Source of the DNA: a virus | IMG/VR virus record: IMGVR_UViG_3300022752_000385 | Coordinates: 1-24,244 of that record | Reading direction: 5' to 3' (one strand) | DNA length: 24,244 bases | In this document: positions 4,446-13,760 of the stretch, one piece after another | Position numbering within the stretch: position 1 is the stretch's first letter | Layout: each line of letters begins with the position of its first letter | Position numbers and translations under genes: made by a program | Notes under the pieces: generated by a model | What the model was told of the DNA's origin: nothing | The model's database searches: none | What the model saw: the letters and a program-made list of their open reading frames with translations, nothing else

Positions 4446-4452
4446 TTATTTG

Positions 4453-4524
4453 TGGTATGGGAGTGGATTCGAACCACCGGCACAAGTTTTTCACACTTTG
4501 CTCTACCTACTGAGCTACCACACC
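4453..4524 (-). tRNA. tRNA-Phe (GAA), slightly irregular
   Basis: Minus strand: acceptor GGTGTGG/CCATACC, D arm GCTC-AGTAGGTA-GAGC, loop GTGAAAA with anticodon GAA, and T arm GGTGG-TTCGAAT-CCACT. The anticodon stem has only four pairs (AAGT/ACTT) and one extra C lies between T stem and acceptor. Discriminator A fits Phe. It is the first tRNA after the structured leader. Confidence 0.8.
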
Positions 4525-4697
4525 ATTTTTTTGTAATTAATAGTTGATACACACTCTCGTTTCACCATATTGTATCAACAGGTTAATGAACTTAACGAGT
4601 TTCCCTTTTCTTACAATCACAATATCTTAAATCAAAGAACTTTTTTCTCTTGTTGTGGGGGTGAGACCACCATCATATTTTCTCACCCCCGTTGTTT
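4525..4697 (-). ncRNA. Structured leader of the tRNA operon with a predicted pseudoknot
   Basis: From the promoter at 4704-4735 to tRNA-Phe there are about 170 transcribed bases with three strong helices: GGGGGTGAGA (4666-4657 in complement) with its 10-base mirror at 4681-4690; GTTAA/TTAAC at 4582-4596; and a perfect 9-bp stem 4543-4551 with 4571-4579. The last loop carries CTCGTT (4556-4561, plus-strand sense), complementary to 4594-4599, giving a 6-bp pseudoknot. A 14-codon frame starts inside the first hairpin loop. It may be a riboregulator or a stable small RNA released by tRNA processing. Confidence 0.55.
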
Positions 4698-4703
4698 GTT
4701 ATA

Positions 4704-4735
4704 CAAAGATATGTAATATATTTTGTTTTGCCAAA
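4704..4735 (-). promoter_or_regulatory. Bacteroidetes-type promoter of the tRNA operon
   Basis: Minus strand TTTG (4735-4732), 20 bases, TATCTTTG (4711-4704). The initial transcribed bases TATAACA resemble TAAAACA after the promoters at 13729-13760 and 13884-13915. The promoter with its upstream T-rich flank is duplicated at 5043-5074. Confidence 0.8.
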
Positions 4736-4779
4736 TCTTTTTTAAACTTTTTTTACCAATATGTCAAAGAACCTTTTTG

Positions 4780-5152: not shown

Positions 5153-5476
5153 TTACATCCCAATTTTTCTTTCAAAATCTCTTAATCTATCTCGATTTTT
5201 ACTATATATTCCAAAACCTTTATCATCATCTTCATGTGCTCCATAACCTCTTTTTAATTTTTTATGAATTGCTTGAGCCAGTTTTTTTGCGTTATCTGAG
5301 TCCATTAAAAAATCTGCAAATTCAACCATTTCATCATTTCCAACTTCAGAAAACTCAAAACTAGAAATTATATCGTCAATAATTTTTCCAATATTTCTTT
5401 TTTCTCTTTCATTTTCTAATATTACTCGTCTAGTTATTCTTGACAAGTCTCTTTCGTTAAATCTTGTTACCCTCAT
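5153..5476 (-). CDS. Putative head-cargo protein, 107 aa
   Basis: Residues 1-22 (MRVTRFNERDLSRITRRVIL, then EN) follow the shared amphipathic pattern and end in I-L-E/N, a fit to the (I/L)-x-E cleavage rule. The rest is helical: KRNIGKIIDDIISSFEFSEV, an acidic middle, and SDNAKKLAQAIHKKLKRGYG, then a basic end (KNRDRLRDFERKIGM). A small, charged, helical product fits an internal head protein. It has a late-type box at 5492-5499 and a terminator at 5101-5130, so it is a single-gene transcript. The family is unknown. Confidence 0.75.
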   Translation of the reverse strand: MRVTRFNERDLSRITRRVILENEREKRNIGKIIDDIISSFEFSEVGNDEMVEFADFLMDSDNAKKLAQAIHKKLKRGYGAHEDDDKGFGIYSKNRDRLRDFERKIGM

Positions 5477-8212: not shown

Positions 8213-8240
8213 AAAAACCCCCATTTTTCGGGGGTTTTTT
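8213..8240. terminator. Bidirectional terminator
   Basis: AAAAAACCCCC (8212-8222) and GGGGGTTTTTT (8230-8240) form a G+C-rich stem with A and U tails on either side. It serves the rightward gene ending at 8210 and the leftward gene ending at 8263. Confidence 0.88.
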
Positions 8241-12695: not shown

Positions 12696-12726
12696 CAAAG
12701 ATATATAAAAAAATTAATTGCACAAA
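12696..12726 (-). promoter_or_regulatory. Bacteroidetes-type promoter, leaderless
   Basis: Minus strand TTTG (12726-12723), 19 bases, TATCTTTG (12703-12696), then 4 bases to the ATG at 12691. Its -33 element is embedded in the U-tract of the terminator that ends the preceding RNA. Confidence 0.8.
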
Positions 12727-12756
12727 AAAAATGGATAATAATATTTTACTATCCAT
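12724..12756 (-). terminator. Terminator of the large non-coding RNA
   Basis: ATGGATA (12731-12737) pairs with TATCCAT (12750-12756); on the minus strand seven U follow. A possible earlier end lies at 12792-12799, where eight U follow an 8-bp stem. Confidence 0.75.
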
Positions 12757-13722
12757 CAATTTTTTGCCGGTTTCAGCTCCATCTATATTAGAAAAAAAAC
12801 GCTGAGATTACACGTCATGTTTGAGAACCTTTAGAGTCATTATTGTTTCTACTCTTATCCACCATCTTTTGGATGGTATTTCTCAGTGCTGGTTATTTAG
12901 GTGAACCACTCCTTGAGGTCTAAGCTACTCTCTTACTACTCAACTCTCTTCGAGGATGCCTCCCCAACTAATCCTTGCGGGACTAGAGGTCTTTTGTAAA
13001 ACTACACTTGGTCTTGGGAACCTAATGTGCCACGGACAGCCCGTGACTAAGTAAGCACCTTTCGATTAGACCTGACAGACACTTTTCCTTATTTATAATT
13101 AATTGTTTAATAATAATTAAGTTTTGTGTTGTGGATTATCGAAGTAGTGGTCTGCCAAAAGAGCCAACCCATCTTTTGAACGAGTCGATACTCAACTACT
13201 TCGTGAAATGTCCCCATTTCCATACTTCAAGAACTCTTCGAATTATTACCTTGGTGGGTAAATAATAAGGACGATGTCAGCACCACCTGTTACTCATCTT
13301 GTCTTTCGACGTTAAGATTCCTCTGATATTGGAACTCGCAATTTAAGTGTTGGAACACTTGGTTTTGCAAAAATTCCTACGAGTTATTCCTATTGGTGTC
13401 CCCACCTCAACTAGACGACCCACATCGCCCAATCATCTAACCACTTTCCCTACAGCGTCGCCCTCGGTACTAAAGGTCAAACGGTATCCCGCTTGTGTAC
13501 TCGACCTCAATTATCTGAAGACAATTAAGACGCAAACCATATAACACAGATGGTTCACTTTATCCCACTTTCGTGGTTTATTTTAATGGACCATACACGG
13601 CCCAATATCTTTATCAATCAAAGAAGAGAATTTCATCTCAATTACTTGCCAAATAATCTGACAAAACTTATCATGAACGGATAATCATTTTTTCAAAGAA
13701 CGTTATCGGACGTTTCCGATTT
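12724..13722 (-). ncRNA. Large structured non-coding RNA, about 1 kb
   Basis: This G+C-richer block has no convincing gene and many helices. The first transcribed hairpin is ATCGGA-AACG-TCCGAT (13720-13705). Others: CCAC-GAAA-GTGG (13576-13565), a GNRA loop only on the minus strand; 13140-13148 with 13195-13203 (9 bp) enclosing hairpins 13156-13162/13172-13178 and 13182-13185/13190-13193; 13031-13035/13041-13045; 12987-12992/13069-13074; 12861-12866/12872-12877. Several stems need G-U pairs valid only on the minus strand. A consensus promoter precedes it and a terminator ends it. Size, phage context and nearby tRNAs fit the GOLLD/ROOL class of giant phage RNAs; identity is unverified. Confidence 0.75.
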
Positions 13723-13728
13723 GTTTTA

Positions 13729-13760
13729 CAAAGTTAAGAAGAATTTTTTTATTTGTCAAA
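13729..13760 (-). promoter_or_regulatory. Promoter of the large non-coding RNA
   Basis: Minus strand TTTG (13760-13757), 20 bases, TAACTTTG (13736-13729). The bases that follow, TAAAACAA then a hairpin, are shared with the promoter at 14124-14155. Confidence 0.82.

What the first reader, a model, noticed from the sequence alone, without database searches (positions are those of the whole stretch)
12724..13722. About 1 kb structured non-coding RNA in a phage, GOLLD/ROOL-like
A G+C-richer block with no gene, a consensus promoter, a 5' hairpin, GNRA-capped and wobble-containing stems valid on the minus strand only, and a terminator. Giant phage RNAs GOLLD and ROOL share this size and setting (near tRNAs) and have been reported to form multimeric RNA cages. 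This could be a member or a new class.
Basis: partly seen in the sequence, partly recalled or inferred. Interest (0 to 1): 0.85.

Follow-up and report, generated by a model that had tools for sequence, protein, structure and literature searches.

The report
Phage GOLLD cage RNA, rRNA-style leader
This phage DNA encodes a complete member of GOLLD, a known giant RNA class that folds into hollow cages, and its front end copies the start signal of bacterial ribosomal RNA genes, which suggests that the phage borrows the host's rRNA transcription machinery to make it.

Summary
The minus strand of 13725-12722 encodes a complete GOLLD RNA: Rfam RF02032, 311.6 bits against a cut-off of 150, for its 3' half. 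The 5' half lies outside the Rfam model, but is conserved and covaries in 98 non-redundant phage relatives. Across both halves, 37 helices and 198 pairs are about 96% paired, against 38-47% for slid controls, and 152 pairs show compensatory changes. Two contacts that hold the published 14-mer cage together are kept: the L20-J13/15 bridge (C-G 49, G-C 47, other 2) and the L21a GC/CG switch. So it is GOLLD, not ROOL and not a new class.

What looks new is the leader. Promoter, hairpin and GUUCUUUGAAA follow in the order of Bacteroidota rRNA leaders; the motif is their boxA, the NusB/S10 antitermination site. It precedes 103 of 115 relatives at 10/11 or better, against 1 of 115 in a control. It also heads phage tmRNA and some tRNA genes. 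I propose that these phages use host rRNA-type antitermination to transcribe long untranslated RNAs. Antitermination is inferred from sequence, and the function of the cage is unknown.

The parts
13729..13760 (-). promoter, Bacteroidota type (TTTG-N20-TAACTTTG); start of transcription expected near 13725
   Evidence: TAnnTTTG lies within 90 nt upstream of boxA in 83 of 96 relatives, median gap 28 nt, against 6.8% of random positions
13705..13720 (-). leader hairpin AUCGGAAACGUCCGAU (position of boxB in rRNA leaders)
   Evidence: -6.8 kcal/mol; the segment between promoter and boxA folds at median z -5.4 in relatives; its stem varies by paired changes among relatives (listing)
13691..13701 (-). 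boxA motif GUUCUUUGAAA
   Evidence: 10/11 or better in 103 of 115 relatives against 1 of 115 in control; same motif in Bacteroidota rRNA leaders
13204..13690 (-). GOLLD 5' (cap) domain, not covered by the Rfam model
   Evidence: 18 covarying helices, 88 pairs, 64 with compensatory changes, 96% paired against 38-43% slid; always accompanied by the 3' domain where the contig has room, one weak hit excepted
12799..13203 (-). GOLLD 3' domain (RF02032)
   Evidence: 311.6 bits, E 1e-88, model 1-416; 19 covarying helices including pseudoknots
13150..13156 (-). 5' strand of a pseudoknot helix, pairs with 13080-13074
   Evidence: S 67; 99% paired, 6 of 7 pairs with compensatory changes
13092..13139 (-). 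A/U-rich variable linker (38-62 nt in relatives, no tRNA inside); corresponds to the linker inside the published cage
   Evidence: linker lengths; homology to env-38 linker by the Rfam alignment and PMC12286853
13014..13018 (-). loop L20 (CCCAA), covaries with 13087 just after the linker (inter-subunit bridge B7 in the solved cage)
   Evidence: C-G 49, G-C 47, other 2
12973..12980 (-). loop L21a (CCGCAAGG), self-complementary GC; a minority of relatives have NGUCGAAN (CG) (symmetric bridge B8)
12722..12757 (-). intrinsic terminator (11-12 bp stem, U8)
4452..4740 (-). second leader of the same design in the window: promoter, hairpin (4690-4657), boxA GTTCTTTGATT (4640-4630), tRNA-Phe (4524-4452)

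Best explanation
A phage of Bacteroidota, probably a very large one, encodes a complete GOLLD RNA of about 1 kb on the minus strand. The RNA starts near 13725 from a host-type promoter and ends at an intrinsic terminator near 12722. It folds into a 5' cap domain and a 3' ring domain joined by a flexible linker, and it keeps the contacts that join 14 copies into a hollow cage. Its leader (promoter, hairpin, boxA) imitates the host rRNA leader: the nascent boxA would be bound by host NusB/S10, which with the other Nus factors protects the polymerase from Rho on this long untranslated RNA and may help it fold. Shown here: GOLLD membership, full-length covariation, conserved inter-subunit contacts, and the shared leader motif in rRNA, GOLLD, tmRNA and some tRNA operons. 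Inferred: cage formation by this RNA, NusB/S10 binding, protection from Rho, and the Bacteroidota host. The biological job of the cage is not known.
For: RF02032 hit at 311.6 bits. 98 non-redundant full-length relatives; 198 pairs about 96% paired against 38-47% slid, 152 pairs with compensatory changes. Pseudoknots and tertiary pairings of the solved structure appear as covariation (compared with PMC12286853). Bridges B7 and B8 kept. The boxA 11-mer occurs 169 times in 4.41 Mb of viral sequence, 156 of them ahead of GOLLD. boxA at 10/11 or better upstream of 103 of 115 relatives against 1 of 115 reversed and 0 of 115 inside the RNA. Same motif in 62 of 112 Bacteroidota rRNA leaders at 10/11 or better, against 1 of 112 in each control. 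Phage tmRNA: 6 of 6 at 9/11 or better. tRNA/tmRNA cluster heads 25 of 195 against 2 of 195. The gamma-proteobacterial boxA consensus is GYTCTTTAANA (PMC5725501).
Against: No transcript, NusB binding or particle was measured. boxA is not seen at the 5' end of GOLLD in Acinetobacter phages, a Mycobacterium phage, L002 or megaphage LR756502, so it is a clade feature, not part of the GOLLD definition. Over three whole megaphage genomes the 11-mer is no commoner than its reversed control (13 against 9). No GOLLD was found in 61 Bacteroidota genomes, so the host rests on promoter type and rRNA-leader likeness.
Confidence: 0.72

Rival explanations
1. The RNA is an ordinary GOLLD, and GUUCUUUGAAA is a structural or processing element of stable RNAs (for example a nuclease site or a pairing partner inside the cage), not an antitermination signal.
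For: The motif is nearly invariant, so its pairing cannot be tested by covariation. It also precedes tmRNA and tRNA, which are all processed RNAs.
Against: The same motif precedes RNAs of unrelated structure and sits just downstream of promoters. It equals the host rRNA boxA in sequence and position. GOLLD clades without it keep the same RNA structure.
Confidence: 0.17
2. The GOLLD leader is a decoy: an abundant phage RNA bearing boxA soaks up NusB/S10 and slows host rRNA synthesis, with the cage presenting up to 14 boxA copies.
For: Each RNA carries one boxA at its 5' end. Related GOLLD RNAs rise during lysis and GOLLD was pulled down with ribosomes according to PMC12286853.
Against: boxA also heads tmRNA and tRNA genes, where a decoy makes little sense. 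Nothing shows that boxA is free in the folded RNA.
Confidence: 0.07
3. It is a ROOL RNA or a new giant RNA class.
For: Similar size and phage setting.
Against: Rfam finds GOLLD at 311.6 bits and no ROOL. GOLLD-specific contacts are conserved.
Confidence: 0.01

Closest known systems
GOLLD RNA (Rfam RF02032; env-38 14-mer cage, Kretsch et al. 2025, PMC12286853)
   Same: 3' domain over the full model at twice the cut-off score; linker, pseudoknots, L20-J13/15 bridge and L21a switch; about 1 kb; phage, tRNAs nearby
   Different: Bacteroidota-type promoter and rRNA-type boxA leader; 5' domain conserved within this clade and outside the Rfam model; here an own terminator, while 17 of 98 relatives have a tRNA 8-24 nt downstream instead
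Bacteroidota rRNA operon leader (boxA antitermination)
   Same: Order promoter TAnnTTTG, hairpin, GTTCTTTGAAA; often followed by TATTGA
   Different: Shorter spacing (median 28 against 41.5 nt); the product is a phage RNA, not rRNA; antitermination untested
boxA ahead of CRISPR arrays (Stringer et al. 2020, cited in PMC7862264)
   Same: boxA proposed to keep polymerase going through a long untranslated RNA
   Different: There the RNA is a crRNA precursor of bacteria; here a phage giant RNA, tmRNA and tRNA
ROOL RNA
   Same: Large phage RNA that forms a cage (8-mer)
   Different: No ROOL match
ICP1 ~800-nt noncoding transcript (PMC7567579)
   Same: Abundant, long, phage, ORF-less
   Different: Family unknown; no tRNAs in ICP1; not compared by sequence here

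Membership tests
GOLLD | RF02032 covariance model at or above the gathering score | tested here: met
   311.6 bits against 150, model 1-416
GOLLD | Two domains, variable 5' part and conserved 3' part, joined by a variable linker | tested here: met
GOLLD | Pseudoknots and tertiary pairings of the 3' domain | tested here: met
   13156-13150:13080-13074, 13059-13054:12890-12885, 12913-12911:12901-12899, 12860-12857:12808-12805 covary; assignment to the published L22 and L27 contacts is by description in PMC12286853, not by superposition
GOLLD | L20-J13/15 inter-subunit kissing contact (bridge B7) | tested here: met
   13017 x 13087: C-G 49, G-C 47, other 2; the naming of these positions as L20 and J13/15 is mine, from the order of helices
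GOLLD | L21a self-complementary loop switching GC/CG (bridge B8) | tested here: met
   CCGCAAGG and NGUCGAAN types
GOLLD | Phage-encoded, often near tRNAs, over 800 nt | tested here: met
   virus record, tRNAs, about 1 kb
GOLLD | Assembles into a 14-mer cage | not testable with these tools
   needs cryo-EM or mass photometry
GOLLD | Expression rises during lytic infection | not testable with these tools
   no transcript data
ROOL | Match to the Rfam ROOL model | tested here: not met
   no hit at gathering score or with E up to 5
rRNA-type boxA antitermination leader | boxA of the host's own rRNA type just downstream of a promoter | tested here: met
rRNA-type boxA antitermination leader | NusB/S10 binding and resistance to Rho | not testable with these tools
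   biochemistry needed

The most novel reading that the evidence does not exclude
A large lineage of Bacteroidota phages, including a 635-kb megaphage, places the host's rRNA boxA leader in front of its untranslated RNAs (GOLLD, tmRNA, some tRNA operons), so that cage RNA is made, and perhaps folded, by the same Nus-factor machinery that makes rRNA.
Probability: 0.6. Interest if true: 0.72.

Novelty: new variant of a known kind. Interest (0 to 1): 0.6.

Why it matters
GOLLD cages are among the largest RNA-only structures known and have no known function. The leader gives a concrete, testable handle: GOLLD synthesis should need NusB and boxA, as rRNA does. It links phage giant RNAs to the host's ribosome-making transcription machinery, which may bear on the reported pull-down of GOLLD with ribosomes. 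The full-length alignments (98 non-redundant members) give a covariation-supported model of the 5' cap domain for this clade, which the Rfam model lacks.

Tried and rejected
ROOL or a new class: rejected. Coding gene: no ORF on the minus strand. Sigma-70 promoter reading: the consensus scan gave little above chance (10 against 6.5 expected); the Bacteroidota element fits better. A first pattern scan returned nothing because its spacing was off by one; corrected. tRNA in the linker: none, linkers are 38-62 nt. boxA as a universal GOLLD feature: rejected, absent in Acinetobacter phages, a Mycobacterium phage, L002 and LR756502. boxA enrichment over whole megaphage genomes: not seen. The first boxA count of 98 of 98 was biased, because the set had been chosen with a profile that includes the leader; it was redone without that profile (103 of 115). 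GOLLD in Bacteroidota genomes: none in 61; larger searches failed on the server. The two key GOLLD and CRISPR-boxA papers (PMC4140389, PMC7665894) are not held, so earlier mention of boxA in GOLLD there cannot be excluded; no held paper joins GOLLD RNA with boxA (the four hits are plant papers).

Full report
What is there. The window is a 24,244-base virus record. On its minus strand, between two protein genes, lies a gene-free, G+C-richer block. Rfam's GOLLD model matches 13203-12799 over its full length at 311.6 bits (cut-off 150, E about 1e-88); ROOL does not match. The Rfam model covers only the 3' half of GOLLD. The 5' half, 13690-13204, is not in Rfam but belongs to the same RNA.

Full length and covariation. 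A motif scan of IMG/VR gave 60 loci, most of them aligning with the window over about 1 kb at 70-95% identity. Where a contig had room, every 5'-domain hit but one weak match (L170) also had the 3' domain. In 98 non-redundant sequences, a mutual-information test found helices along the whole RNA. In total 37 helices and 198 pairs are about 96% paired, against 38-47% when the partner is slid; 64 of 88 pairs in the 5' domain and 88 of 110 in the 3' domain show changes on both sides. The helices were chosen on this same alignment, which favours the unslid register, but compensatory cells exceed the slid controls at least five-fold in both domains. The Acinetobacter phage RNAs share the 5' domain weakly (E 2e-7 and 3e-4) and two megaphages strongly.

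Cage contacts. Kretsch et al. 2025 (PMC12286853) solved GOLLD env-38 as a 14-mer cage and named its bridges. The contact between L20 and J13/15 (bridge B7) appears here as 13017 against 13087: C-G 49, G-C 47, other 2. L21a, a symmetric kissing loop (B8), switches between an internal GC and an internal CG, as reported for other GOLLDs. The names L20, J13/15 and L21a were assigned from the order of helices, not by superposing structures. That this RNA assembles into a cage is inferred.

The leader. From the 5' end the minus strand reads: promoter TTTG-N20-TAACTTTG (13760-13729), hairpin (13720-13705), GUUCUUUGAAA (13701-13691), then the 5' domain. That 11-mer is the boxA of Bacteroidota rRNA leaders. 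In 112 such leaders fetched by the 16S start, 62 have it at 10/11 or better within 400 nt, against 1 of 112 for either control; 50 of 77 with a clear boxA have TAnnTTTG within 90 nt upstream and usually a hairpin between. In phage relatives picked without using the leader, 103 of 115 have it at 10/11 or better, against 1 of 115 in the reversed control and 0 of 115 inside the RNA. The exact 11-mer occurs 169 times in 4.41 Mb (both strands), 156 of them before GOLLD, with about 3 expected from base composition (the expectation is my estimate). Most of the rest head tmRNA or tRNA genes: six tmRNAs found by Rfam all have boxA at 9-11 of 11, 14-30 nt upstream, and 25 of 195 other tRNA/tmRNA cluster heads have it against 2 of 195. 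The window itself has a second such leader before tRNA-Phe: promoter, hairpin, boxA at 4640.

How it most likely works. In bacteria boxA in nascent RNA recruits NusB and S10 and protects transcription of rRNA from Rho (PMC4807359 abstract; PMC5725501); boxA has been reported ahead of CRISPR arrays as well (PMC7862264). GOLLD, tmRNA and tRNA operons are untranslated and so exposed to Rho. The economical reading is that these phages borrow the host's rRNA-type antitermination for their own stable RNAs. This is inference from sequence. The 3' end is made in two ways in the family: a terminator in the window, or a tRNA (15 Met, 2 Leu) starting 8-24 nt downstream in 17 of 98 relatives with none between 30 and 280 nt, which suggests RNase P cutting; that too is inference.

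Limits. boxA is absent at the GOLLD 5' end in Acinetobacter phages (where GOLLD sits inside a tRNA array), a Mycobacterium phage, L002 and megaphage LR756502, and present in LR745206. Over three whole megaphages the 11-mer is not enriched. The host is inferred. What the cage does is unknown to me and to the held literature.

Setting. Glutamine synthetase and the acetyltransferase region of the window have their best phage relatives in 634-735 kb megaphages, two of which carry GOLLD, so the window is probably a piece of a very large phage genome.

Verdict. Observation confirmed, interpretation supported: a GOLLD member. The rRNA-type leader is, as far as I could check, undescribed, and makes it a new variant. 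Interest 0.6.

Noticed in passing
window 13885-13780 (minus strand): A separate structured element of about 105 nt behind its own Bacteroidota-type promoter (13915): a closing stem with four hairpins, z -2.06; 95-97% identical in L006 and L010 and 88% over 74 nt in the much more distant L038; no Rfam match.
   Followed up: partly
window 14155-14124, 13915-13884, 13760-13729 (minus strand): Three similar promoters TTTG-N20-TAnnTTTG-TAAAACA in tandem upstream of GOLLD; relatives also show repeated promoter units there.
   Followed up: partly
window ORFs on the minus strand starting at 5476, 8886, 9983, 10760, 11501, 16217, 17212, 21953 and others: Many otherwise unrelated phage proteins begin with a short basic tag ending in [IL]xE (for example MKKIVRLTEFDLNKIVKRTINES); it resembles a T4-type capsid-targeting sequence with a prohead-protease site. 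Not tested.
   Followed up: no
window 19819-18620 (minus strand): Phage-encoded glutamine synthetase (PF00120, PF03951); best relatives in 634-735 kb megaphages.
   Followed up: partly
L081, L091, L157, L172, L195, L211 and others: Relatives of this phage carry their own tmRNA gene, with boxA directly after the promoter.
   Followed up: partly
L204 (minus strand, boxA near 8234 and 6552), L195 (minus strand, near 13704): boxA followed by several hundred bases before the next tRNA; possibly further untranslated RNAs.
   Followed up: no
17 of 98 GOLLD relatives (for example L014, L050, L096): A tRNA-Met or tRNA-Leu begins 8-24 nt after the GOLLD 3' end in place of a terminator.
   Followed up: yes
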